A DNA stretch of 10,696 nucleotides from NCBI GenBank assembly GCA_943328885.2, contig CALQBT020000044.1, positions 1 through 10,696 on the forward strand. The letters run 5' to 3'. Below, piece by piece: positions 171-10,696 of the stretch (position 1 is its first letter; each line of letters starts with the position of its first letter). This DNA is from Bordetella parapertussis (lineage in GTDB: Bacteria; Pseudomonadota; Gammaproteobacteria; Burkholderiales; Burkholderiaceae_C). The notes under the pieces are model-generated. The model saw nothing but the letters and a program-made list of their open reading frames with translations. It was not told where the DNA came from and ran no database searches. The translations under genes were made by a program, and so were the position numbers.

Positions 171-1481
171 CTAGACCAAGACCTCGATGCAGCCTGGGTG
201 ACCGAGAAAGGCCTGCGGACTGGCGCTGGGGCCATAGGCACCCGACTGGTACACCACCACCAGATCGCCGACATCGGCCACCGGCAAGTCCATGCGGTCG
301 GCCAACAGGTCGAGCGGGGTGCACAGCGGACCGACCACCGAGGCGGTTTCGCGCAGCGCCGAATCAGCCTTGTTACCGATGGTGACCGGGTAGTTCTTGC
401 GCAACACCTGCCCGAAATTGCCCGACGCCGCGAGGTGGTGGTGCAGGCCACCGTCACAGACCAGAAACACCTGGCCGCGCGACAGCTTGCGGTCGACCAC
501 GCGCGTCACGTAGACGCCGGACTCGCCGACAAAGTAGCGGCCCAGTTCGATCACGATTCCGGCTTGCGGCAACTCGGTCCGGGCCCGCTCGCACAAGCTG
601 GCCAGGTTATCGGCAATCGGCGCCAGATCGAGTCGCCGCTCGCCAGGGAAATAAGGGATGCCGAAGCCGCCGCCCAGGTTGAGAAACCGCACGGGCGCGG
701 GCGCCGCCGCGGCCAAGCGCAGCGCCAGTTCATAGCTCTTGCACTGCGACTCGCAGATCGCCTCGGCGCGCAGGTTCTGCGAACCCGCGAAAAGATGAAA
801 GCCCTCGAAAGCCAGACCGAGTGCTGCGACGCGGGCGAGCATGGCGGGCACTTGCTCGACATCGATGCCGAAGGGCTTGGCGCCGCCCCCCATCTTCATG
901 CCCGAACCCTTGAGCTCGAAGTCGGGATTGACACGCAAGGCCACCCGAGCGCGCCGGCCCAGGGCCTGCGATTCGCGCGCCAGCACCTCGAGCTCACGCG
1001 CCGACTCGACGTTGACCAGCACACCCGACGCGCAGGCCTGGCGCAACTCGATGTCGCGCTTGCCTGGCCCGGCGAAACTGATCTCCGCAGGATCGGCCCC
1101 GGCATCCAGCGCCACCTTGAGTTCACCGCCGGAGGCAACATCGATGCCATCGACCAGCCCTGCCATCAGCCCCACGACCGCGGGCATCGGATTGGCCTTC
1201 ATCGCGTAGTGCAGCTTGACCGCCGCCGGCAGTTGCTGCCTGAGCTGCGCCACACGCTGTTGCAGCAAGGCCCGGTCGTAAGCGTAGAAAGGCGTTTGGC
1301 CGACTCTTGCGGCCAGCAGGTTCAGTGGCACCCCGCCAATGACGAGTTGGCCGGCGCGCAGCGCGAACTGGTCCATCTCAGCATGGGTCGGTAACTGGCG
1401 CGGCGCCAGCGTCGACGCCAAGACTCGGTCGCTCGACAGACCTTGCGAATTCATCTGCCCGGACTCGGCCGACGGGCTCAT
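171..1481 (-). CDS. PLP-dependent decarboxylase, exosortase A system-associated
   Basis: A cytosolic fold-type III PLP enzyme of the Orn/Lys/Arg/DAP decarboxylase superfamily, in the subgroup found with exosortase A loci (TIGR03099-like, identified from memory). It should remove the alpha-carboxylate of an amino acid or amino-acid conjugate; the substrate is not known. The 436 residues show the PLP-lysine motif HYAMKAN (K95), the glycine-rich phosphate loop LGGGFGIPYF (about 269-278), ELGRYFVGESGVYV (about 312-325), the catalytic-cysteine segment GPLCTPLD (C387) and the tyrosine motif GAYG (Y416). The DAP-decarboxylase signature CESxD is replaced by CTPLD, so lysine synthesis is unlikely. The start used makes an ATGA overlap with the upstream ligase stop. 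An internal Met at residue 36 (1376) would give about 401 residues, nearer the family length I remember, and is the main alternative. The tight pairing with the AMP-forming ligase is a hallmark of this family. Confidence 0.9.
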   Translation of the reverse strand: MSPSAESGQMNSQGLSSDRVLASTLAPRQLPTHAEMDQFALRAGQLVIGGVPLNLLAARVGQTPFYAYDRALLQQRVAQLRQQLPAAVKLHYAMKANPMPAVVGLMAGLVDGIDVASGGELKVALDAGADPAEISFAGPGKRDIELRQACASGVLVNVESARELEVLARESQALGRRARVALRVNPDFELKGSGMKMGGGAKPFGIDVEQVPAMLARVAALGLAFEGFHLFAGSQNLRAEAICESQCKSYELALRLAAAAPAPVRFLNLGGGFGIPYFPGERRLDLAPIADNLASLCERARTELPQAGIVIELGRYFVGESGVYVTRVVDRKLSRGQVFLVCDGGLHHHLAASGNFGQVLRKNYPVTIGNKADSALRETASVVGPLCTPLDLLADRMDLPVADVGDLVVVYQSGAYGPSASPQAFLGHPGCIEVLV

Positions 1482-3100
1482 GCGGCCCCCATCGAATGCC
1501 TCAGCAACCAGGCAAGGGCCAAATTCTTGCGATCGATCTTGCCATTGGGGTTGCGCGGCAAGGGACCGACCGATGGCTCGATCCCGGCGGGCACCATGAA
1601 AGCCGGCATGCGCGAACGACAGTCGGCCAGCAACGCGCTCAGGTCCAGCCCAGGGCCATCACCCAGCGGCGTGGCGATCACCTGGATGACCTGACCCAAG
1701 GCGGCATCGTCGACCCCAAAGGCCACACATTCCCCGACCAGCCCGCTTGCATAGACAAGCTCCTCAACCTCGGTCGGGCTGACGCGGTAGCCCGAGGTCT
1801 TGATCATCTCGTCCCGACGCCCGATGAAGTACAGAAAACCCTCGGCATCCTGGCGCACGGTGTCCCCCGAGAACACCGCGTATTCGGGCAATTGCAAACC
1901 GGCGGGACGGCTGCCCACACCCGCGGGCAGCAGCTTGTAGCGCTCGGCGGTCTTCTCGGCGTCGTTCCAGTAACCCTGACCCACCAAAGCGCCGCGGTGA
2001 ACCAACTCGCCGGGTTCATCCACTGCGCAAGCCGAGCCATCGTCGCGCAGCACCAGGATCTCGGCATTGGGGATTGCCTTGCCGATCGAATCGGGCCGCC
2101 GGTCGACTTCGTCGGGCGAGAGGTAAGTCGAGCGGAAAGCCTCGGTCAGGCCGTACATCAGCACCGGTTTGGCGCCAGGCAGGCGCTGCCGCAACAGCCC
2201 CAGCGTGTCGAGCGGCATGCGACCGCCGGTGTTGGCAAAGTAGCGCAAATGCCGCGCGACCTCAGCCGGCCAATCCAGTCGCGACAACTGGATGTAGAGC
2301 GGCGGCACCGCCGTCAAGCCTGTGACGCGCTCGCGCGCCATCGCCTTGAGCACGTCGCGTGGCAACAGGTAATTGAGCAGCACCACACGGGCACCCGCAT
2401 GAAAAGCCGTCGTGAGCTGGCTGAAACCGGCGTCGAAAGACAGCGGCAACGCGGCCAGCAAGGTGTCGTCAGCATGGTTGCCCAAGTAGGAGGCCACGCT
2501 CTTGGCCCCCGCGACCATGTTGCGGTGCGACAGCACCACCCCTTTGGGCCGCCCGGTGCTGCCCGAGGTGTAAAGGATGGCAGCGATGTCGGTGTCGATG
2601 ACACGGTGGGCGGCGCGGCAGGCGCCATCGACAAGCTCTGCCCAGTGCAGCAGCGTCAAGCCCTCAGGCAGCGCGACTGGCTGGGCAAGCAGACCCGTCA
2701 CCAGCACAAAGCGCAGTGCCGGGCAGCCGGCAAGCGCCACGGCCAGCGCGGGCAGGCGCTCGGGCGAGGTCACCAACAGCTTGACATCGCAGTCCTGCAG
2801 GATGAAAGCCACCTGCTCAGGTTTGAGCAAGGGGTTGACAGGCACGAACACCGCACCGGCCGCGGGCGCCCCGAAGCTGGCGATCACCGTCTCGAAGCGT
2901 TGCTCCAGATAGATGGCCACGCGCTCAGCACGCTGCACGCCCAAGCCCATCAAGCCTGAAGAAAAAGAAAATACCTCTTCAGAAATATCTTCGTATGAAC
3001 GCGACATTTGACCCGCCGTCAAGGCCACTGAACTCGGCGACCTCTCGGCAGCGACAGCAAGCAACTCGTGGAGCAAAGAGGATTCCGGCATCAAGCGCAT
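1478..3100 (-). CDS. Acyl-CoA ligase (AMP-forming), exosortase A system-associated
   Basis: An ANL-superfamily adenylating enzyme (TIGR03098-like) that should activate a carboxylate with ATP and pass it to CoA or a carrier protein; the nearby acyl carrier protein is a plausible acceptor. With the start chosen (540 residues) the motifs run in order: P-loop YTSGSTGRPKG (about 177-187), YGLTE (316-320), SGD for ribose binding (411-413), the hinge GRRDEMIKTSGYR (427-439) and the C-terminal catalytic lysine in PRNPNGKIDRK (K521). The reading frame stays open to an ATG at 3223 (581 residues), but family similarity begins only at SLLHELL, so the ATGs at 3100 or 3091 are preferred; AGGGAG lies about 12 bases before the 3100 ATG. 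Its stop overlaps the decarboxylase start (ATGA), which implies co-translation. The substrate is unknown. All catalytic motifs are intact. Confidence 0.9.
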   Translation of the reverse strand: MRLMPESSLLHELLAVAAERSPSSVALTAGQMSRSYEDISEEVFSFSSGLMGLGVQRAERVAIYLEQRFETVIASFGAPAAGAVFVPVNPLLKPEQVAFILQDCDVKLLVTSPERLPALAVALAGCPALRFVLVTGLLAQPVALPEGLTLLHWAELVDGACRAAHRVIDTDIAAILYTSGSTGRPKGVVLSHRNMVAGAKSVASYLGNHADDTLLAALPLSFDAGFSQLTTAFHAGARVVLLNYLLPRDVLKAMARERVTGLTAVPPLYIQLSRLDWPAEVARHLRYFANTGGRMPLDTLGLLRQRLPGAKPVLMYGLTEAFRSTYLSPDEVDRRPDSIGKAIPNAEILVLRDDGSACAVDEPGELVHRGALVGQGYWNDAEKTAERYKLLPAGVGSRPAGLQLPEYAVFSGDTVRQDAEGFLYFIGRRDEMIKTSGYRVSPTEVEELVYASGLVGECVAFGVDDAALGQVIQVIATPLGDGPGLDLSALLADCRSRMPAFMVPAGIEPSVGPLPRNPNGKIDRKNLALAWLLRHSMGAA

Positions 3101-3359
3101 CTCAAGGCCGCTCTCCCTGTCGACCACCCTATCGACTGTACACGCACGGTCCCTTGGCATCACGCCCCGCGATGTGACGTTTTCAGCCCCAAGTCGACCT
3201 GAGACAGAGCGCATTTCACTCACCCAGTCTTGCCATCACGAAATACAGAGACCGCTTCCGTGACCGGTTACCGCGCGCAAGCCTCGATCAGACATCGCCA
3301 AGCCGGTCTCCCTCGGCCATGACCTCTAGAATTATTTTTGAACCTCAAGAAGAACCATC
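3101..3359. promoter_or_regulatory. Divergent intergenic control region between ligase and acyl carrier protein genes
   Basis: About 260 bases separate two divergent operons and should carry both promoters, since each flanking gene heads a tightly packed transcription unit. For the plus strand, TAGAAT at 3327-3332 followed by an AT-rich run (ATTATTTTT) resembles a -10 element 28 bases before the ACP start, but no good -35 lies 16-18 bases upstream, which suggests activator dependence. I found no GG-N10-GC sigma-54 pattern on the plus strand near the ACP gene. No clear minus-strand promoter hexamers could be picked. If the ligase starts at 3223 instead, the non-coding part shrinks to about 136 bases (3224-3359). 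Confidence 0.5.
3260..3271. repeat. 12-base imperfect palindrome, candidate operator
   Basis: GTGACCGGTTAC fits GTNACCGGTNAC, a dyad with one mismatched pair. It sits about 56 bases upstream of the candidate -10 at 3327 and in the middle of the divergent region, a fitting place for a dimeric regulator acting on both operons. A 12-base site of this kind can also arise by chance in GC-rich DNA, and no second copy was seen nearby. Confidence 0.3.
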
Positions 3360-3620
3360 ATGACCGCAATGAATGTGCAAGAGCAAGTTCTTCGAACGCT
3401 GAGCGAAGTGCTCAGTCTGAGCGACCGGATCAGCAGCTTCACCCGCGAGACTCCCCTGCTGGGTTCGATTCCTGAACTTGACTCCATGGCGGTGGTTTCA
3501 CTGATCGGCGCATTGGAAGAGAGCTTCGGCATCAGCATCGATGACGACGACATCGAGGGCGCCACCTTCGCCACGGTCGGCTCGCTCGTGGACTTCGTCA
3601 GCGCCAGGCTGGTGCAATGA
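3360..3620 (+). CDS. Acyl carrier protein, exosortase A locus
   Basis: An 86-residue carrier protein with the ACP/PCP four-helix pattern. The phosphopantetheine attachment serine is S42 in PELDSMAV, followed by the acidic helix SLIGALEESFGISI and DDDDIEG typical of carrier proteins. After modification by a 4'-phosphopantetheinyl transferase it would carry an acyl or aminoacyl thioester in the cytosol. It is not the fatty-acid ACP by context: it opens the operon that faces the AMP-forming ligase and is followed 13 bases later by two alpha/beta hydrolases. Ligase, ACP and hydrolases together suggest carrier-bound chemistry, comparable in logic to DltA-DltC loading (inference). A second Met at codon 4 is an alternative start. 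The ribosome binding site is weak and A-rich (AAGAAGA). Confidence 0.9.
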   Translation: MTAMNVQEQVLRTLSEVLSLSDRISSFTRETPLLGSIPELDSMAVVSLIGALEESFGISIDDDDIEGATFATVGSLVDFVSARLVQ

Positions 3621-3633
3621 AGCCAAGCGCGAA

Positions 3634-4473
3634 ATGCAGAACGTACAAGCCAGCGCTCAACCCCTGTTCCTAGACCTTCACGCTGGCGCGCTAGGCCGTC
3701 GCTTCGCTGTCTACCATGCACCGCGGCCCAGCCTGATGCAAGGTCAAGTGGTCTACCTTCATCCCTTCGCCGAGGAAATGAACAAGTCACGTCGCATGGC
3801 TGCCCTGCAGTCGCGCGCCTTGGCCCGCGCCGGCTTCGCAGTCCTGCAGATGGATCTCCTGGGCAGCGGAGACAGTGACGGAGACTTCGGCGACGCCAGT
3901 TGGGAGCGCTGGGTCGACGATGCAGTGTTCGGGGTCCGCTGGCTTGCCAAGCGTGCGGCGGGCCCCTTGTGGCTTTGGGGACTTCGCGCCGGCTGTCTGC
4001 TCGCCACTGAAGTCGCACACCGACTCGATCAGCCCAGCCGCTTCTTGTTCTGGCAGCCCGCGAGTTCGGGCAAACTGCTGCTGCGACAGTTCTTGCGCAC
4101 CAAGATCGCTGCCGATATGCCGGTTGGCAAGTCGCATGGTCTGATGACGAATTTACGCGATCGACTCAGTTCGGGTCAATCTCTCGACATCGCAGGCTAC
4201 ACCCTGTCGCCCGCGATGGCGCTGGGGCTAGAACAGGCGACGTTGAGATCCCCTCTGCGCTCATCTCAATCGATATGGTACGAGCTGTCCCTTCGGCCCG
4301 ACGACGGGCCCACCGCAGGACTGACCGCCAACTCTTCGCGGTGGGCCGACGCGGGAAGCCCGCCGATAGTTTGCACCGTTGAAGGCCCGGCCTTCTGGCA
4401 AACCTCGGAAATCAAAGACGCACCGACCCTGATCGACGCGACCGTCAGCGCCGTGACCGAGATGGCCACATGA
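3634..4473 (+). CDS. Alpha/beta hydrolase, exosortase A system-associated hydrolase 2 type
   Basis: A 279-residue alpha/beta-hydrolase-fold protein matching the XrtA-associated hydrolase 2 family (TIGR03101-like) in length and motifs. Visible are HPFAEEMNKSRR (about 43-54), the GSGDSDGDF turn (77-85), the nucleophile-elbow position GLRAG (116-120) and the C-terminal GPAFWQTSEI (251-260). The elbow has Arg where classical hydrolases have Ser, so a standard Ser-His-Asp mechanism is not possible. I recall this as a family trait, so it need not be decay. The reading frame is open further upstream, but those codons overlap the ACP gene; the Met at 3634 lies 13 bases past the ACP stop and begins the region of similarity. 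It overlaps hydrolase 1 by ATGA. Its partner may be hydrolase 1 or the carrier protein (inference). Confidence 0.85.
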   Translation: MQNVQASAQPLFLDLHAGALGRRFAVYHAPRPSLMQGQVVYLHPFAEEMNKSRRMAALQSRALARAGFAVLQMDLLGSGDSDGDFGDASWERWVDDAVFGVRWLAKRAAGPLWLWGLRAGCLLATEVAHRLDQPSRFLFWQPASSGKLLLRQFLRTKIAADMPVGKSHGLMTNLRDRLSSGQSLDIAGYTLSPAMALGLEQATLRSPLRSSQSIWYELSLRPDDGPTAGLTANSSRWADAGSPPIVCTVEGPAFWQTSEIKDAPTLIDATVSAVTEMAT

Positions 4474-5387
4474 ACTTCGAGGATCAAGCCATCAGCTTCG
4501 CCTGCTTGGGCGAGACACTGACCGGCATCCTGTCACAGCCTGAAGACGCAGCGGACACCGCCGTCATCGTCGTGGTCGGCGGGCCGCAGTACCGCGTCGG
4601 CAGTCATCGGCAGTTCGTGCAACTGGCCAGGCGCCTGGCTCGACAGGGCTATCCGGTCCTGCGATTCGATGCCACCGGCATGGGCGACAGCAACGGTCTG
4701 CTGCGCACTTTCGAGGCGTTCGACAACGACATCGGTGCAGCCATCGACACGATCACCGACCGTACTTCGGTCGGCAAGATCGTGCTGTGGGGGCTTTGTG
4801 ACGGGGCGTCGGCGGCCCTGATGTACTGGCAAGCCACGCGCGACCCGAGAGTATCGGGAATGGTCTTGTGCAACCCTTGGGTGAGGTCCGAAACCAGTCT
4901 GGCTCGGGCCCAGATCAAGCACTATTACACACGGCGCCTGATGCAGCGCGAGTTCTGGACCAAACTGCTGCGCGGCGGAGTGGCCGCCGGCGCGTTGACC
5001 GGTCTGGTCATGCGCGCAAGCTCGGTGCTTCGGCGCGCGAAGCCGGAAAGTCTGCGCACAGGACCAATGTCACACCAAGCGTTTCAGCAACGCATGGCCG
5101 AAGCCTGTTTGTTGTTTCCTGGAAGCATACTTCTGCTGCTGAGCGGCCAAGACCTCACGGCGCAAGAGTTCATCGAACACATCAAGACCCATCCGGTTTG
5201 GCGCAGCGCCGTCAGCTCCAAGAAGGTGCAGCGGGTTGATCTACCCCAGGCCAACCACACCTTCTCGGATCCGCGTGACAGCGCGAAAGTTGAAGCGCTC
5301 ACGCTGCATTGGCTCGACGAAACGACAAAAATAGTGCCCGAAATCCACCAAGCATTCCTCGAACTCCAGATGAGGGAAAGACCATGA
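4470..5387 (+). CDS. Alpha/beta hydrolase, exosortase A system-associated hydrolase 1 type
   Basis: A 305-residue alpha/beta hydrolase of the XrtA-associated hydrolase 1 family (TIGR03100-like). It has GGPQYRVGSHRQF near the oxyanion strand (about 37-49), FDATGMGDSNG (67-76), the nucleophile elbow WGLCDGAS with C110 in place of Ser, the acidic residue in SGQD (D228) and the histidine in ANHTFSDP (H263). This is a complete Cys-Asp-His triad, as in dienelactone-hydrolase-like enzymes, so hydrolase or thioesterase/acyltransferase activity is likely; the substrate is unknown. The start forms an ATGA overlap with hydrolase 2, with GAG (4459-4461) eight bases upstream. The two hydrolases are neighbours in this class of locus, and a direct ACP-thioester substrate is an attractive guess. 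Confidence 0.88.
   Translation: MNFEDQAISFACLGETLTGILSQPEDAADTAVIVVVGGPQYRVGSHRQFVQLARRLARQGYPVLRFDATGMGDSNGLLRTFEAFDNDIGAAIDTITDRTSVGKIVLWGLCDGASAALMYWQATRDPRVSGMVLCNPWVRSETSLARAQIKHYYTRRLMQREFWTKLLRGGVAAGALTGLVMRASSVLRRAKPESLRTGPMSHQAFQQRMAEACLLFPGSILLLLSGQDLTAQEFIEHIKTHPVWRSAVSSKKVQRVDLPQANHTFSDPRDSAKVEALTLHWLDETTKIVPEIHQAFLELQMRERP
5372..5377 (+). promoter_or_regulatory. Ribosome binding site fixing the TPR protein start
   Basis: GAGGGA ends six bases before the ATG at 5384. It supports this start over an ATG at 5309 in the same frame, because the protein from 5384 begins with a proper signal peptide and the start overlaps the previous stop as ATGA. Confidence 0.6.
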
Positions 5388-6103
5388 ACGACGGGTGCGA
5401 CTGCCAAATTTTTCGTTCCAGTTTTATCCCCACCCTGGCGACATTCATCGCGTTGGCGCTGCCGCCTCAAGCAAGCGCCCAACCGTTGGTGAGCGAATCC
5501 CTCTGCGGACCCTTGAATGCCGTCCAAGGCGACAACCGCCACATTAACCAAAAACAACGTCAATTGGTAGAAGGCGCGCACTTCCCCAGCCATGTCGAAA
5601 ATCTGATCAGAGGTCATTCAACGCATTTCGCTGGGGACATCAGCTACACACTGATCGCTTTCCCCAACCACTATCGGGCGCTCGTCTCAGCGGTGCGCTA
5701 CGCGGAAAAGAGCAAATCGGACACGCCGCCTCAGATGTGGTATCCAGTGGAGTGCTGGTTCGAAAGAGCCATTCGATTCAAAGCCGATGACCACATTGTC
5801 AGGATGCTTTACGCTGATTTTCTGATCAAGAGGTCTCGTCATGACGAGGCCATTCGGCAACTCGACGCTGCGCTTTTTTATGCCGATCCCGAAAGCCCAA
5901 TCACACCGTACAACGTCGGCTTTCTCTACTTGGAGATGAAGCGCTACGACAAAGCACTTCTTTACGCCCAGAAAGCTCAAGCCATGGGCTTTCCCAAACT
6001 AGAGCTCAGGAGACGGCTCGAGACCGCAGGCAAGTGGTCAGATTCAGAATCAACCCCCACCCCTTCAGAAACCATTCCAATCGCGCCGGAGCTGGCCCCA
6101 TGA
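5384..6103 (+). CDS. Exported tetratricopeptide-repeat (TPR) protein
   Basis: A 239-residue protein with an N-terminal signal peptide: R11, then a hydrophobic stretch at about 14-27 and a likely signal peptidase I site after ASA (residue 32). The mature part starts with SLCGPL, followed by LVEGAHFPSHVENLIRG and AFPNHYRAL (about 92-100). I recall this head module from uncharacterised proteobacterial TPR proteins, but the family has no assigned function that I know. TPR-like helix pairs fill about 121-215 (YADFLIKRSRHDEAIRQL and YNVGFLYLEMKRYDKALLY). The tail is Ser/Thr/Pro-rich. It is probably periplasmic and may scaffold polysaccharide assembly or export (inference). It is the only exported product in this operon segment. 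The start overlaps the hydrolase 1 stop, and its stop overlaps the aminotransferase start. Confidence 0.8.
   Translation: MNDGCDCQIFRSSFIPTLATFIALALPPQASAQPLVSESLCGPLNAVQGDNRHINQKQRQLVEGAHFPSHVENLIRGHSTHFAGDISYTLIAFPNHYRALVSAVRYAEKSKSDTPPQMWYPVECWFERAIRFKADDHIVRMLYADFLIKRSRHDEAIRQLDAALFYADPESPITPYNVGFLYLEMKRYDKALLYAQKAQAMGFPKLELRRRLETAGKWSDSESTPTPSETIPIAPELAP
6088..6091 (+). promoter_or_regulatory. Ribosome binding site fixing the aminotransferase start
   Basis: GGAG lies eight bases before the ATG at 6100. It favours this start over an in-frame ATG at 6034, which would overlap the TPR gene by 70 bases. Confidence 0.5.
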
Positions 6104-7446
6104 CCCGTGACGTGCTGGTGGTGCGGGAATATGCATCCTCGACAGCCCCGGCAACTTCAATCGCCGGGACCGCCACGCCCTTGCCCAAGGGACCCGTCCT
6201 CGGCTGGTCAACCTGGGCTTGGCTTCCCGTCAACCCGAGCACAAAGCACGACATTGCACATCGCAGCCGGCGCATCATGGTCACGAGCGGGCGCGCGGCC
6301 ATCCTGCTCGCGCTCAAGCAACTTCGCTTGCCGAGCGCCAGCGTTGTCCTGGTTCCCAGCTACCACTGCCCAACGATGGTGGCACCGGTCCTGCTGGCAG
6401 GGCTGCAACCGGACTACTACGCCATTGACTCTGACGGCTTGCCCGATTTCTCGAGTGTCTCGGTCGAATTGATCAAGCGTGTCAAGGTCGTTCTTGTAGC
6501 GCATTATTTCGGTTTGCCGAGATCACTCGCCAAGGTGCGCAACTGGTGTGATGTGCATGGTGTGGCCTTGATCGAAGACTGCGCCCACTGCTTGTACGGT
6601 CAGGCCGGCGCCTTGCCGGTGGGAGGATGGGGCGATTTCGCGACTGCCAGCATCTCCAAGTTCCTTCCCGTGCTCGAAGCTGGCCTGTTGATCTCCAGGC
6701 GCAAAAGCATACCGAAGGTAAGGCAGGTGGGTCAGGGATTGCATGCCCAGATCAAGGGCTGCTTCGACCTGTTGGAATATGCCACGGCGCATGATCGCCT
6801 CAGGGGCCTTGGTTGGATTGTCGCCCTGTGTCGGATGCTCAAGAAACCAGCCCCTCAGACTTGGGAAAGGTCTGAAACTGATGCGGGTCCTGGGCAGGCT
6901 TGCGATGCCCAGGCTGCGATGGCTGCCTGCGACATGGGACGCAGCGACAAGAAGCCATTGCTGGTGTCGATGCTCCTGTACTGCATCATCCCGACAGCCC
7001 GGATGCAGGCTCGCAGGCTTGCAAACTACAACCTCTATGCGCAACAGCTCGAGGCAGTCGCCGGTGCGCATCCATTGTTCAAGGGGCCTGCACCGTCCGG
7101 CACCGTGCCCTATGTCTTTCCACTATGGGTAGATGACGCCGACCAGGTCTATGGCATGGCTCGCCAGTCCGGGCTGCCAGTGTATCGCTGGGATCGACCT
7201 TGGCCAGACAGGCCCAGCCTGCCCGGTGACAGCGGCCCTGGCTGGAATCAACATGTCCTGCAGTTGCTATGCCATCAGGACTTGAGCGCCAAGGACATCG
7301 AAGTCTGCGCCAAGGCCCTCATCGAGATGATCCACCTCGCGTCAGCCGAAACGCAGACCCTTGCCAACGGAGAAGGGCCAAAACCGCACCTGCCAGCAGC
7401 CGCAATCCCGCAGGTACCCGCACGAGAAGTCCCTGAGACACCATGA
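6100..7446 (+). CDS. DegT/DnrJ/EryC1/StrS-family PLP aminotransferase
   Basis: A fold-type I PLP enzyme of the sugar aminotransferase family, 448 residues. It shows TSGRAAILLAL (about 62-72, cofactor phosphate region), VPSYHCPTMVAPVL (85-98), the PLP-ring aspartate in LIEDCAHC (D160), the Schiff-base lysine in ASISKFLPV (K187) and the RRLANYNLY helix (305-313). Such enzymes usually transfer an amino group from Glu/Gln to a nucleotide-linked keto-sugar in the cytosol. It is longer than typical members (about 370-400), with about 45 extra N-terminal residues and a Pro/Ala-rich tail of about 30. The usual small Gly-rich turn after the lysine reads VLEAGLL, a divergence seen in the exopolysaccharide-linked branch. 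A GNAT-like acyltransferase follows with ATGA overlap, fitting amination then acylation of a sugar. The substrate cannot be read from the sequence. Confidence 0.8.
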   Translation: MTRDVLVVREYASSTAPATSIAGTATPLPKGPVLGWSTWAWLPVNPSTKHDIAHRSRRIMVTSGRAAILLALKQLRLPSASVVLVPSYHCPTMVAPVLLAGLQPDYYAIDSDGLPDFSSVSVELIKRVKVVLVAHYFGLPRSLAKVRNWCDVHGVALIEDCAHCLYGQAGALPVGGWGDFATASISKFLPVLEAGLLISRRKSIPKVRQVGQGLHAQIKGCFDLLEYATAHDRLRGLGWIVALCRMLKKPAPQTWERSETDAGPGQACDAQAAMAACDMGRSDKKPLLVSMLLYCIIPTARMQARRLANYNLYAQQLEAVAGAHPLFKGPAPSGTVPYVFPLWVDDADQVYGMARQSGLPVYRWDRPWPDRPSLPGDSGPGWNQHVLQLLCHQDLSAKDIEVCAKALIEMIHLASAETQTLANGEGPKPHLPAAAIPQVPAREVPETP

Positions 7447-8561
7447 AAACATCTGGTCTTGAAATGCACTGGCGCCTTGGCAACGCTCAGCTTCTGGTGT
7501 CAGACCCGAGAACACGTGACAGTTGGGATCACCTCAATTTACGGGGTCTGAACCTGCCATTCATGACGGCTTCGTGCTGGGCTATTGCGACGCAGGTGTT
7601 TGGCAATGGCAGTGAGCGCTTGCTCGTCGGCCGTCAAGGCGAGCATGTCCGCGCCATGTTGTTGGTCACCCGCACCGGCAGGCTGGGCTGGCAGACCTTT
7701 CAACCCTCACAGATGCCGCTCGGCGCCTGGGTCGCAGAGGCTGACATCGACGCCTGCGAGATGGCCGCCGATGCACTGGCCAAAGGCCTGATCGTGGCGC
7801 TGTCCCTCACCGTGTCGCAAGTCGACCCCAGGCACGCAGCCCGACGCACGGACGGCCCGGCCGATGAACAAGCGGACTACATAGAGACCGCCTGGGTCGA
7901 GGTCACGGGAACCTTCGAGGCGTACTGGTCTGAAAGAGGAAAAAATCTTCGCCAGAACATGCGAAAGCAGCGCAAGAAACTTGCCGATGACGGTGTCGAT
8001 ATGAAATTCCTGGCGTACCGCTGCGAGGAGGACATGGCGCCAGCGCTGAAGCGATATGGACTGATCGAAAGCGCGGGTTGGAAGGCCGACTTGGGCACAT
8101 CGATACACCCAGACAACGAGCAAGGTCGTTTCTACCGATCGCTCCTGGAGGATGCTGCCAAGCGGGGCGAGGCGATCGTCTACGAACTCCGTTTCAATGA
8201 GAAAGTCGTTGCAATGAACCTCTGCCTCGTGCGCCAAGGCTTGCTGGTGGTGCTCAAGACGACCTATGACGAAAGCGTGGACAAGAGCATTTCACCAGCA
8301 TTCCTGTTGCAAGAAGACGTGCTGAGGAGACTTTTCGAAGGAGACGAGGTCAAGCGGCTTGAATACTACGGTCGCTTGCGCGATTGGCACACCAAGTGGA
8401 CCGACCGAAAGCGGATGCTGCACCATCTCACGGTCTTTCGCTGGCCTTGGGTGAAGGCCGCCGCGATCTGGCGGCGCAACGCGAGACGGCGAAATGTTGA
8501 GCCTGATCTGTCCAGAACAATCCCAACGCCGGGCCCAATATCAGTGGAGCGACCGGGATGA
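7443..8561 (+). CDS. GNAT-like / FemAB-related acyltransferase
   Basis: A 372-residue protein with the GNAT-like acyltransferase domain of the CelD/BcsL and FemAB-related group (PF13480-like) at about 155-320. The basic segment RGKNLRQNMRKQRKKL (165-180), the strand GEAIVYELRFNEKVVAMNL (242-260) with its core GNAT beta-hairpin and the YDESVDKSISPAFLLQEDVL region (275-294) are characteristic. It has no signal peptide or membrane helix, so it should act in the cytosol, probably transferring an acyl or aminoacyl group to an amino sugar. It could be the enzyme that receives the product of the ACP/ligase module (inference). The start overlaps the aminotransferase stop as ATGA, with GAGA just upstream. 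The C-terminal 40 residues are basic and low in conservation signals. Confidence 0.75.
   Translation: MKTSGLEMHWRLGNAQLLVSDPRTRDSWDHLNLRGLNLPFMTASCWAIATQVFGNGSERLLVGRQGEHVRAMLLVTRTGRLGWQTFQPSQMPLGAWVAEADIDACEMAADALAKGLIVALSLTVSQVDPRHAARRTDGPADEQADYIETAWVEVTGTFEAYWSERGKNLRQNMRKQRKKLADDGVDMKFLAYRCEEDMAPALKRYGLIESAGWKADLGTSIHPDNEQGRFYRSLLEDAAKRGEAIVYELRFNEKVVAMNLCLVRQGLLVVLKTTYDESVDKSISPAFLLQEDVLRRLFEGDEVKRLEYYGRLRDWHTKWTDRKRMLHHLTVFRWPWVKAAAIWRRNARRRNVEPDLSRTIPTPGPISVERPG
8546..8549 (+). promoter_or_regulatory. Ribosome binding site before a very short ORF at 8558
   Basis: GGAG lies eight bases before the ATG at 8558, which overlaps the GNAT stop as ATGA exactly like the other junctions of the operon. 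The frame closes after only 25 codons, which suggests that a gene once began here. Confidence 0.35.
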
Positions 8562-8639: not shown

Positions 8640-8867
8640 ATGAGAAGCGCGCCGCCATCAGTCGAGTTCCGCAAGAATTTCAGTGTCAGGAAGATTCAAT
8701 CTGTGATTTTCCTGAGACGGTCATTTTTCGGATTGCAGTGTTTCAGCCTCGATATCGTGCTGTACACACACGAAGGTCTCTCGTTGCCAGGGGAGTATCC
8801 CATCGCTGACGACGCACAACGCCAGGTCATACAGCACGACTGCTTGATGACGAGGCGCGACGCATGA
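8640..8867 (+). CDS. Small unrecognised protein, or the 3' part of a broken gene
   Basis: A 75-residue frame whose stop overlaps the glycosyltransferase start as ATGA. Hand counting gives GC of about 50, 41 and 66 percent at codon positions 1, 2 and 3, the ordering expected of coding DNA in a GC-rich genome, although the segment is clearly more AT-rich than its neighbours. The middle reads FRKNFSVRKIQSVIFLRRSFFGLQ in two basic/hydrophobic blocks; there is no signal peptide and no motif I recognise. The ribosome binding site for the ATG at 8640 is poor, and the frame is open upstream to 8601. It may be a real small translated spacer gene, or the remainder of a gene that began at 8558. Confidence 0.4.
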   Translation: MRSAPPSVEFRKNFSVRKIQSVIFLRRSFFGLQCFSLDIVLYTHEGLSLPGEYPIADDAQRQVIQHDCLMTRRDA

Positions 8868-10216
8868 TGCCTGTGCCAGTCGGTCAAGCTGCTGCAGCGC
8901 ACAGATCTCTCTCGGGTCGCGGTCAGCAGCCAAGCCGAGTCTTGATGATCGCCTACCATTTCCCGCCGCTGATGGGCAGCAGCGGCATTCAGCGGACCCT
9001 GCGCTTCGTCAAGCACCTGCCCACCGAAGGTTGGGATCCACTGGTTCTGACAGCGCACCCCCGCGCTTACGAGCGCGTGACCAGTGACCTGATCACCGAA
9101 ATTCCGCGGGAAACAGTCGTGCGGCGCGCTTTTGCATTGGACGCTGCCCGGCATCTTGCATTGGGCGGGCGTTACCTCGGCGCCACCGCACGCCCCGACC
9201 GATGGGCGAGCTGGCAGTACGACGCTGTGCGTCAAGGGCTGCTGATGATCGAGCAATACCGGCCCTTGGCGATCTGGTCGACCTACCCCATTGCTACAGC
9301 GCACCTGATTGGCGCTGAGTTGCAACGCCGCAGCGGCCTGCCCTGGATCGCCGATTTCCGCGATCCCATGGCACAAGACGGCTACCCTGCCGACCCCAAG
9401 ACCTGGCGCCGATACCAAGCGATCGAGGCAAGTGCGATGTCCCAAGCGCTTGCCTGCACCTTCACCACCCGTGGCGCCGCGCAGGTCTATCGGCAGCGCT
9501 ACCCGGATGCCGCGTCGCGCATCTCGGTGATCGAGAATGGCTACGATGAGGAGAGTTTTCCCAGCGCGGGTACAGTGGCAGCCGCGCCCAAGCGCAGGCC
9601 GACTCCTCAGCCCATAGTGCTGTTGCACAGCGGCATCATCTACCCCTCCGAGCGAGATCCGATCTGCCTGTTCCAGGCCCTGCGATGGCTGCTTGACCAA
9701 GGCCATCTCGAACGCGGTGCGCTGATATTGCGATTCAGGGCCGCTGTGCATGACGAACTCTTGCGCGATCTTGCGCAACGCCACGGTGTCGCCGACTGTG
9801 TTGAGACAGTCCCTGCACTGCCTTACCGCGATGCCTTGGCCGAGATGATGGGGGCCGATGCGCTGCTGGTGCTGCAGGCCAGCAACTGCAACGAGCAAAT
9901 TCCAGCCAAGCTTTATGAATACTTGCGGGCGGGGCCGCCTGTTGTCGGGCTGACCGATCCCGCGGGTGACACGGCCGAGTTGCTTGCCCGAGCCGGCATT
10001 CCCTATGTTGCGCCACTCGACGACACATTGGCCATCGCCAGGACGCTTGCGGCATTGTGTAGCGCGCTGCGCAAAGGTGATGCCGTGCTTCCCCTGCCCG
10101 CAGCGGTGACATCGGCGTCGCGGCGCCTGCGTGCGCGGTCTCTGGCGGATCTGCTGACAAGCGTGGTGAAGTCCCCTGGTTCATCCAACACTCCGATCGA
10201 TCAAGACCGATGTTAA
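8864..10216 (+). CDS. GT-B glycosyltransferase (GT4-like)
   Basis: A 450-residue glycosyltransferase with two Rossmann-like domains. The N-terminal domain starts VLMIAYHFPPLMGSSGIQRT (27-45), with the Gly-rich acceptor/phosphate loop, and continues to WIADFRDPM (161-169). The C-terminal domain has IVLLHSGIIYPSERDP (251-266) and the donor-binding IPAKLYEYLRAGPPVVGL (346-363), whose Glu (E352) is in the usual position. It would transfer a nucleotide-activated sugar to a growing lipid-linked oligosaccharide or protein-linked glycan at the cytosolic face of the membrane. No membrane helix is visible. The first 22 residues are poorly conserved in type and a later start is possible, but GAGG at 8852-8855 fits the ATG at 8864. 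The next gene overlaps its stop by seven bases. Confidence 0.88.
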   Translation: MMPVPVGQAAAAHRSLSGRGQQPSRVLMIAYHFPPLMGSSGIQRTLRFVKHLPTEGWDPLVLTAHPRAYERVTSDLITEIPRETVVRRAFALDAARHLALGGRYLGATARPDRWASWQYDAVRQGLLMIEQYRPLAIWSTYPIATAHLIGAELQRRSGLPWIADFRDPMAQDGYPADPKTWRRYQAIEASAMSQALACTFTTRGAAQVYRQRYPDAASRISVIENGYDEESFPSAGTVAAAPKRRPTPQPIVLLHSGIIYPSERDPICLFQALRWLLDQGHLERGALILRFRAAVHDELLRDLAQRHGVADCVETVPALPYRDALAEMMGADALLVLQASNCNEQIPAKLYEYLRAGPPVVGLTDPAGDTAELLARAGIPYVAPLDDTLAIARTLAALCSALRKGDAVLPLPAAVTSASRRLRARSLADLLTSVVKSPGSSNTPIDQDRC

Positions 10217-10696
10217 AGACATTTCAACGGCTCAAGGCCGCGATGACCCCAGAAATTCTGCCCGCCGTCGCAAGGGCGGAGAGCAGCCTTGAGCGCGGCG
10301 ATCCAGGTCGACCCGATCCTGGTGCCACCGCCGTGATTGAGGCCTGTGTCGATTGGCTTTGTACCGCACAGGACCGGTCGGCGTCAGCCGATGGTGGCAT
10401 CGCTCGCGACTACAGCCTGATCACCGGCTGGTCAACCTCCTACCCGGAGACCACCGGTTACATCATTCCGACGATGATCGATGTGGCAACCCGCCAAGGC
10501 CGTGAAGACCTGCATCAGCGCGCTCGGAAGATGCTTGACTGGTGCGTGGACATTCAGTTCGACAGCGGCGCATTCCAGGGCGGAAAGATCGATGCAAGCC
10601 CTTTTGTGCCAGTGACCTTCAACACTGGCCAGATACTGCTGGGTCTGGCAGCGGGGGCTGCCGCTTACGGAGACGCCCGCTATCGTCGTGCCATGC
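10210..10696 (+). CDS. Predicted alpha/alpha-barrel protein of polysaccharide loci (partial, 3' end outside window)
   Basis: The first 162 codons of a gene cut by the window edge. The ATG at 10210 overlaps the glycosyltransferase stop (ATGTTAA). The segment DWLCTAQDRSASADGGIARDYS and, further on, GWSTSYPETTGYIIPTMID (about 73-91), followed by FQGGKID and FNTGQILLGLAAG (about 137-149), is the pattern of six-hairpin / (alpha/alpha)6-barrel proteins encoded in exopolysaccharide clusters, related to sugar epimerases and polysaccharide-acting enzymes. No signal peptide is seen. The role is probably modification of a sugar or polymer, but activity cannot be claimed without the missing C-terminus. 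An alternative start at the Met of codon 12 exists. Confidence 0.75.
   Translation, partial: MLKTFQRLKAAMTPEILPAVARAESSLERGDPGRPDPGATAVIEACVDWLCTAQDRSASADGGIARDYSLITGWSTSYPETTGYIIPTMIDVATRQGREDLHQRARKMLDWCVDIQFDSGAFQGGKIDASPFVPVTFNTGQILLGLAAGAAAYGDARYRRAM

What the first reader, a model, noticed from the sequence alone, without database searches (positions are those of the whole stretch)
171..5387. Exosortase A-linked ligase/decarboxylase/ACP/two-hydrolase module with no established product
Five genes (AMP-forming ligase, PLP decarboxylase, carrier protein, two alpha/beta hydrolases) are split into two divergent units around one control region. From family knowledge this set recurs beside exosortase A, yet I know of no defined substrate. 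The enzyme mix suggests loading of an amino acid-like acid onto the ACP, decarboxylation to an amine or amide precursor, and release or transfer by the hydrolases. The product could decorate the exopolysaccharide or the PEP-CTERM proteins.
Basis: partly seen in the sequence, partly recalled or inferred. Interest (0 to 1): 0.7.

Follow-up and report, generated by a model that had tools for sequence, protein, structure and literature searches.

The report
Beta-amino-acid decoration module for exopolysaccharide
This gene set, known only by placeholder names and often found with the exosortase A sorting system, looks like a small assembly line that loads an aspartate-like amino acid onto a carrier protein, clips it to a beta-amino acid and perhaps attaches it to a slime sugar, which gives a set without an assigned product a testable one.

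Summary
The five genes are real; all but the ACP score over the curated cut-offs of TIGR03098/03099/03100/03101, so the set itself is known. New is the chemistry. The ligase's best single-domain PDB match is VinN; [quoted passage not shown] Asp and Arg are kept in 89 of 89 relatives and occur together in 0 of 28 other AMP-binding proteins of this genome. The decarboxylase is nearest to BtrK, which acts on a carrier-bound amino acid, and shares its Cys-Thr-Pro loop. An analogous trio, AfcQ/K/P, turns L-Asp into beta-alanyl-carrier in vitro (passages). So the module probably makes beta-aminoacyl-ACP, most likely beta-alanyl. 'Hydrolase 1' has a Cys nucleophile; 'hydrolase 2' has an invariant Arg there and is probably no hydrolase. 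ATGA overlaps extend the operon to an aminotransferase and a GNAT, to 8561. The XrtA link is strong, not exclusive: 22 of 34 ligase genomes have XrtA, seven no detected exosortase. Transfer to an amino sugar is inferred.

The parts
171..1481 (-). DEC: PLP decarboxylase (TIGR03099), BtrK-like; Lys95 (PLP); Cys387-Thr388-Pro389 loop (codons 315-323). The family model begins at residue 41, so the true start may lie downstream
1478..3223 (-). LIG: AMP-forming ligase (TIGR03098), VinN-type; Asp264 (2432-2434), Thr332 (2228-2230), Arg364 (2132-2134), Lys562. Model begins at residue 50; GTG start uncertain
3224..3359 (.). divergent intergenic region, presumed to hold both promoters (not shown)
3360..3620 (+). 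ACP: stand-alone carrier protein, phosphopantetheine Ser42 (3483-3485) in E-x-DSM
3634..4473 (+). HYD2 (TIGR03101): alpha/beta-hydrolase fold with Arg118 (3985-3987) at the nucleophile elbow and Trp255 where His is expected; predicted pseudo-hydrolase
4470..5387 (+). HYD1 (TIGR03100): alpha/beta hydrolase with Cys110 (4797-4799), Asp228, His263
5384..6103 (+). TPR-like protein (no model over its cut-off), N-terminus looks like a signal peptide (my reading), coupled to HYD1 by ATGA
6100..7446 (+). DegT/DnrJ/EryC1-type sugar aminotransferase (PF01041, 68 bits, partial match), coupled by ATGA
7443..8561 (+). GNAT acyltransferase (PF13480, 71 bits), coupled by ATGA; candidate transferase of the beta-aminoacyl group
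8864..10216 (+). glycosyltransferase-like (PF13439, 25 bits, below its cut-off), context only

Best explanation
The module is a carrier-protein pathway for a beta-amino acyl group used in exopolysaccharide synthesis. (1) The ligase adenylates the distal (beta) carboxylate of an aspartate-like amino acid, most likely L-aspartate, and loads it on the ACP arm. (2) The PLP decarboxylase removes the alpha-carboxylate while the residue is on the ACP, giving a beta-aminoacyl-ACP, most likely beta-alanyl-ACP, perhaps extended to an oligo-beta-alanyl chain as in the Afc system. (3) The Cys-type hydrolase 1, perhaps with the catalytically dead hydrolase 2 as partner, shuttles or edits that thioester. 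(4) The GNAT puts it on the amino group of a sugar made by the DegT aminotransferase, before polymerisation and export. Steps 1-2 rest on residue-level homology to characterised enzymes; the exact acid, and steps 3-4, are inferred from catalytic residues and operon structure only.
For: Ligase: best single-domain PDB match VinN 3wvn, 211 bits over residues 19-569 (five entries of multi-domain LgrA stand above it at 221, their two A domains summed), and top outright for residues 19-400. [quoted passage not shown] with one constant offset of 16 they are chain D246/S315/R347 and align with ligase D264/T332/R364. D264 89/89, R364 89/89, T/S332 76/13, Lys562 89/89; D and R also in two plasmid copies and two remoter relatives below my bit threshold. 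Control: of 29 other AMP-binding proteins of this genome examined (37 matched) 0 have Asp at the first site; 1 of the 28 covering the second has Arg (L139); none has both. Decarboxylase: BtrK 271 bits vs 166 for the next, a DAP decarboxylase; C-T-P in 92/92 as in BtrK, where that DAP decarboxylase has C-E-T and this genome's LysA C-E-S. PMC12186527 (passages): AfcQ (VinN-type), AfcK and AfcP turn L-Asp into beta-Ala-S-AfcK, iteratively; AfcQ Arg311 = VinN Arg331. ACP Ser42 70/70. Operon: four ATGA overlaps. LIG-DEC-DegT-GNAT on one strand in Accumulibacter L063; GNAT-like-LIG-DEC-ACP-like on S. meliloti pSymB; FemAB-type protein + ACP beside DEC/LIG in G185. HYD1 triad and HYD2 Arg.
Against: No biochemistry; the pocket is read from alignments, and the VinN structure paper was not held. 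Two pocket groups exist (A265/T332 in 76, Y265/S332 in 13); the ligases of all seven genomes without a detected exosortase fall in the second, so they may use another acid. In G077, G204 and G212 a ligase over the cut-off has no TIGR03099 decarboxylase over its cut-off in the genome and none beside it; in G120 likewise, but its contig ends just after the ligase. So decarboxylation is not part of every such pathway. GNAT-type genes were found in only 34 of the 80 related loci (five of the six GNAT queries came from fetched loci, so some count themselves; flanks are often cut by contig ends), and GNATs are common in polysaccharide clusters anyway. No direct support for any role of HYD1/HYD2; in G197 they sit beside an NRPS-like protein. 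No paper on beta-alanyl groups on an exopolysaccharide of these bacteria turned up (listings; passages).
Confidence: 0.6

Rival explanations
1. Same logic but the acid is L-glutamate: gamma-glutamyl-ACP is decarboxylated to 4-aminobutyryl-ACP, as with BtrI/BtrK in butirosin synthesis.
For: The decarboxylase is nearest to BtrK, whose substrate is glutamyl-BtrI (PMC7857480 passages).
Against: The activating enzyme is VinN-like, and the VinN-type enzymes in the passages read take 3-methyl-Asp or Asp; no VinO structure is named in the PDB list, so nearness to BtrK may reflect what has been solved.
Confidence: 0.15
2. The ligase makes an acyl-CoA or fatty acyl-ACP and the decarboxylase makes a free amine or polyamine; the two enzymes act on separate substrates.
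For: Curated names say acyl-CoA ligase and decarboxylase. Ligases without the decarboxylase exist in three genomes.
Against: The Asp264/Arg364 pair was absent from the 28 other AMP-binding proteins of this genome that cover both sites; DAP-type residues are replaced by BtrK-type ones; ligase and decarboxylase overlap by ATGA here and lie on one strand in all 76 loci where both were found.
Confidence: 0.1
3. The group modifies PEP-CTERM proteins or their anchor rather than the polysaccharide.
For: 20 of 23 hydrolase-1 genomes have XrtA.
Against: The ligase/decarboxylase pair occurs in genomes without a detected exosortase and in polysaccharide clusters of two alphaproteobacterial plasmids (those genomes were not searched for exosortase); 29 of 51 XrtA genomes have no ligase over the cut-off.
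Confidence: 0.1
4. A diffusible small molecule (nonribosomal peptide-like) is made, with the polysaccharide genes as neighbours only.
For: Analogous trios serve antibiotics or lipopeptides (passages); in G197 hydrolases 1 and 2 adjoin a condensation-adenylation-carrier protein.
Against: No NRPS or PKS gene among the ten window ORFs scanned; polysaccharide genes recur around related copies.
Confidence: 0.1

Closest known systems
AfcQ / AfcK / AfcP of AFC-BC11 synthesis in Burkholderia (PMC12186527, passages read)
   Same: stand-alone VinN-type ligase with the key Arg, one carrier protein, PLP decarboxylase; reported to make beta-alanyl-carrier from L-Asp in vitro
   Different: there part of a lipopeptide cluster; here with two alpha/beta-hydrolase-fold proteins, DegT, GNAT and, in relatives, polysaccharide/exosortase genes. 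Sequences of AfcQ/AfcP were not compared
VinN / VinL / VinO of vicenistatin synthesis (PMC11284099, PMC7756342, passages read; PDB 3wv4, 3wvn)
   Same: ligase closest in sequence among single-domain PDB entries; amino- and carboxyl-recognising residues kept (Ser to Thr)
   Different: 3-methylaspartate and a polyketide starter unit there; VinO and VinL not compared
BtrI / BtrK of butirosin synthesis (PMC7857480 passages; PDB 7ru7, 2j66)
   Same: decarboxylase nearest in sequence among PDB entries; carrier-bound substrate; Cys-Thr-Pro loop
   Different: glutamate, loaded by a ligase of another kind (recalled, no call)
XrtA / PEP-CTERM exopolysaccharide locus (NCBIfam TIGR03098-03101, TIGR02915-02917, TIGR03013, TIGR03109)
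   Same: the same families recur together; PrsT, PrsK, PrsR and EpsB-type genes near some related copies
   Different: the ligase-decarboxylase pair is wider than XrtA; 'hydrolase 2' lacks a hydrolase active site

Membership tests
NCBIfam TIGR03098, TIGR03099, TIGR03100, TIGR03101 | score over the curated cut-off | tested here: met
   750/592, 616/478, 321/168, 270/203 bits
VinN-type beta-amino-acid adenylation enzyme | Asp (VinN 230) for the amino group and Arg (331) for the alpha-carboxylate | tested here: met
   D264 and R364 in 89 of 89 relatives; both together in 0 of 28 paralogues covering both sites, Arg alone in 1
VinN-type beta-amino-acid adenylation enzyme | Ser299 in the carboxylate site | tested here: inconclusive
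   Thr in the window; T 76, S 13 of 89
VinN-type beta-amino-acid adenylation enzyme | activates the distal carboxylate of an Asp-like acid | not testable with these tools
   needs an enzyme assay
BtrK/VinO-type carrier-bound amino acid decarboxylase | PLP lysine and a Cys-loop unlike DAP decarboxylase | tested here: met
   Lys95 92/92, C-T-P 92/92; BtrK aligned with C-T-P, a DAP decarboxylase with C-E-T, own LysA (one sequence) C-E-S
BtrK/VinO-type carrier-bound amino acid decarboxylase | acts on the carrier-bound, not the free, amino acid | not testable with these tools
   needs an assay
alpha/beta-hydrolase with a Ser-His-acid triad: hydrolase 1 | Ser nucleophile | tested here: not met
   Cys110 in 55 of 55; Asp228 53, His263 53 of 55: a Cys-type triad instead; elbow between strand 103-109 and helix 111-123
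alpha/beta-hydrolase with a catalytic triad: hydrolase 2 | nucleophile and His | tested here: not met
   Arg118 57/57 between strand 112-117 and helix 119-130; Trp255 57/57 where His is expected
obligate part of the XrtA/PEP-CTERM system | always co-occurs with XrtA | tested here: not met
   ligase genomes with XrtA 22 of 34; hydrolase-1 genomes 20 of 23; XrtA genomes without ligase 29 of 51; the same 274 genomes

The most novel reading that the evidence does not exclude
The beta-aminoacyl (or oligo-beta-alanyl) group is put on a polysaccharide or its lipid carrier to provide the primary amine onto which exosortase A transfers PEP-CTERM proteins after cleavage, in the way that Fem enzymes build the glycine bridge onto which Gram-positive sortases transfer proteins (analogy recalled, no call). 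The module would then supply an acceptor for the exosortase reaction and explain why surface polysaccharide and protein sorting genes travel together. That 29 of 51 XrtA genomes have no ligase over the cut-off means it could only be one of several acceptor chemistries.
Probability: 0.08. Interest if true: 0.92.

Novelty: new variant of a known kind. Interest (0 to 1): 0.6.

Why it matters
These families carry placeholder names ('exosortase A system-associated') in the curated library, with no substrate in the name. The residue evidence gives a named, cheap test (L-Asp, ligase, ACP, decarboxylase, intact mass) and predicts a beta-amino acid, that is a free amine, on a matrix polymer of bacteria that include Accumulibacter, Zoogloea, Rhodoferax and Rubrivivax relatives (hits; floc and granule formers by general knowledge). 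It would carry a chemistry that the papers read describe for antibiotics and lipopeptides into the making of extracellular polysaccharide, and it corrects a misleading annotation ('hydrolase 2').

Tried and rejected
Promoter scans: no sigma-54 or sigma-70 match in the divergent region. Literature on these families: in the open library one paper, PMC3584217, mentions one of the four accessions (or the two phrases searched with them) and calls its protein a predicted hydrolase (passages); the PEP-CTERM paper PMC1569441 holds none of the six terms ligase, decarboxylase, hydrolase, acyl carrier, acyltransferase, asparagine synthase; (exosortase, decarboxylase, acyl carrier protein) lists one paper, PMC8776678, one occurrence of each, not opened; one search found none. 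Searches for beta-alanine on amino sugars or exopolysaccharides gave nothing usable (listings; passages). None of the 40 listed of 50 papers shows both an exosortase/PEP-CTERM term and a BtrK/butirosin/vicenistatin/beta-alanyl term; 10 rows were not shown and subscription papers are mostly not held. A floc-mutant paper, PMC9850573 (passages), names PrsK, PrsR and EpsB2 but none of the module's enzymes under the terms searched. Tying the S. meliloti copy to a described polysaccharide failed (listing). A polyamine/free-amine route and a fatty-acid route were considered and put low on the pocket residues. The idea that the module is XrtA-specific was rejected. An earlier count said 0 of 29 paralogues have D264 or R364; on rereading, one of the 28 covering it (L139) has the Arg; the report uses the corrected count.
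Full report
What is there. The window is the whole contig C44 of a draft genome (2.92 Mb, 467 contigs, 62% complete). On the minus strand lie a decarboxylase (171-1481) and an AMP-forming ligase (1478-3223), overlapping by ATGA; on the plus strand a carrier protein (3360-3620), hydrolase 2 (3634-4473) and hydrolase 1 (4470-5387). The plus-strand unit runs on: ATGA overlaps at 4470, 5384, 6100 and 7443 tie hydrolase 2, hydrolase 1, a TPR-like protein, a DegT-type aminotransferase and a PF13480 GNAT into one coupled operon to 8561 (families).

Conservation of the set. In these 80 the ligase was found in 76 (each on the decarboxylase's strand), the ACP in 63, hydrolase 2 in 54, hydrolase 1 in 50; the ACP diverges from the ligase in 58 of 62; ACP-HYD2-HYD1 keep order in 48 of 50; DegT and GNAT adjoin in 18 of the 19 that have both (tblastn gave the ligase in 77). 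Short contigs explain part of the absences; I did not count which.

Link to exosortase A. The same 274 genomes of the class (the window's own included) were searched with five models. Over the curated cut-offs: XrtA 51, ligase 34, decarboxylase 30, hydrolase 1 23, hydrolase 2 17 (22 at E <= 1e-45). Ligase and decarboxylase share 29; ligase and XrtA share 22 against 6.3 expected (Fisher p about 1e-10); hydrolase 1 and XrtA share 20 of 23; all 23 hydrolase-1 genomes are among the 34 ligase genomes, all 22 hydrolase-2 genomes among the 23 (Fisher ignores kinship). In 8 of the 22 genomes with both, ligase and XrtA are on one contig, about 20 to 61 kb apart (coordinates); in the other 14 they are on different contigs. 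Against exclusivity: 12 of 34 ligase genomes have no XrtA over the cut-off; a Pfam exosortase search of these 12 found none in 7 (completeness 85-100%). Three hydrolase-1 genomes lack XrtA (G044, with another exosortase; G104 and G197, with none found). Of the 11 ligase genomes without hydrolase 1 only 2 have XrtA. So the hydrolase pair is the XrtA-linked part; ligase and decarboxylase are a wider unit. Against a fixed pair: of the 5 ligase genomes without a decarboxylase over its cut-off, G094 has it split over two contigs, G120's contig ends just after the ligase, but in G077, G204 and G212 I saw none beside the ligase.

Ligase chemistry. The best single-domain PDB match is VinN (3wvn, 211 bits over residues 19-569; five multi-domain LgrA entries rank above it at 221), and VinN is top for residues 19-400. 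[quoted passage not shown] In the PDB chain these are 246, 315, 347, one offset of 16 for all three, and align with ligase Asp264, Thr332 and Arg364. In 89 sequences (window plus 88 from 109 loci, at least 80% coverage and 380 bits): Asp 89, Arg 89, Thr 76/Ser 13, catalytic Lys 89. Two plasmid copies and two relatives below that threshold keep Asp, Arg and Lys too. Control: of 38 AMP-binding matches in this genome 30 became loci, one being the ligase itself; of the 29 others none has Asp at the first site, one of the 28 covering the second has Arg (L139), none has both. The Ser to Thr change and two pocket groups (A265/T332 76; Y265/S332 13) leave the acid open; the ligases of the seven genomes without a detected exosortase are all in the second group, the window's in the first.

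Decarboxylase chemistry. The best PDB matches are BtrK (7ru7, 2j66; 271 bits), then a DAP decarboxylase at 166. BtrK decarboxylates glutamyl-BtrI carrier to the aminobutyryl form (PMC7857480, passages); the same paper names the loop holding the conserved Cys as a specificity element. Here that loop is C-T-P in 92 of 92, as in BtrK; the DAP decarboxylase has C-E-T, and this genome's own (partial) LysA has C-E-S and a D-L-V-R-P stretch where the module has H-H-L-A-A. PLP Lys95 is in 92 of 92.

Precedent. PMC12186527 (passages) reports in vitro that AfcQ, a VinN-type enzyme, activates L-Asp and not beta-Ala, loads carrier AfcK, and that AfcP (semipure) decarboxylates it there to beta-alanyl-AfcK, iteratively; its Arg311 equals VinN Arg331. 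PMC7756342 proposes the same for BolO/BolC/BolN and reports that deletion of bolN abolished the product. I did not compare those sequences.

The two 'hydrolases'. Hydrolase 1 has G-x-C-x-(G/A/S) with Cys110 in 55 of 55, Asp228 and His263 in 53 of 55; the two exceptions (L026, L059) lose both. Hydrolase 2 has Arg118 in 57 of 57 and Trp255 in 57 of 57. Models: mean pLDDT 86.3 and 93.9; Cys110 stands between strand 103-109 and helix 111-123, Arg118 between strand 112-117 and helix 119-130, the nucleophile-elbow place in this fold (general knowledge). Both match lipases and feruloyl esterases best in PDB. So one is a Cys enzyme, fit for acyl transfer or thioester cleavage, the other very probably not a hydrolase.

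Acceptor. In Accumulibacter L063 ligase, decarboxylase, DegT and GNAT follow on one strand; on S. meliloti pSymB a GNAT-like protein (my reading of its sequence; Pfam gave nothing), ligase, decarboxylase and an ACP-like stretch absent from the PLSDB table lie among glycosyltransferases; in G185, without a detected exosortase, a FemAB/GNAT protein and an ACP stand by the pair, though aromatic amino acid genes flank them. GNAT-type homologues occur in 42 of 102 loci, 34 of the 80 (five of the six GNAT queries came from fetched loci). Among 100 loci clustered, a flippase-like family occurs in 19 and PrsT-, PrsK-, PrsR- and EpsB-type families in 17 each. I infer N-acylation of an amino sugar; a protein target or a small molecule is not excluded.

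Verdict. Known gene set, new and specific functional assignment: beta-aminoacyl-ACP synthesis by VinN/BtrK-type enzymes, probably for a polysaccharide. I put about 0.8 on an Asp-like acid loaded by its distal carboxylate and decarboxylated on the ACP, 0.6 on L-Asp to beta-alanyl, 0.4 on GNAT transfer to an amino sugar.

Noticed in passing
own genome C120:1767-2546 (L002): A second EpsH-family exosortase-like match, 158.9 bits to the XrtA model and below its cut-off.
   Followed up: no
L106 1416-3002, L107 5028-6608, L108 7834-9414: Ligases over the TIGR03098 cut-off with no TIGR03099 decarboxylase over its cut-off in their genomes (G077, G212, G204) and none beside them; all three have the Y265/S332 pocket. 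They may load an acid that is never decarboxylated.
   Followed up: partly
L059 and L067: Two ACP matches, on either side of hydrolases 1 and 2.
   Followed up: no
L026, L059 (hydrolase 1): The Cys is kept but Asp228 and His263 are replaced by Ser and Gln in both.
   Followed up: no
L096, genome G197: Hydrolases 1 and 2 next to a condensation-adenylation-carrier protein in a 99% complete genome without a detected exosortase.
   Followed up: partly
genome G134: Hydrolases lie about 23 kb from XrtA on contig 1 while ligase and decarboxylase are on contig 2, so the two units can part.
   Followed up: no
L140 15262-15529: ACP-like stretch, absent from the PLSDB gene table, just after the decarboxylase on S. 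meliloti pSymB.
   Followed up: partly
window 10210-10695: ORF running off the contig with no family over its cut-off.
   Followed up: no
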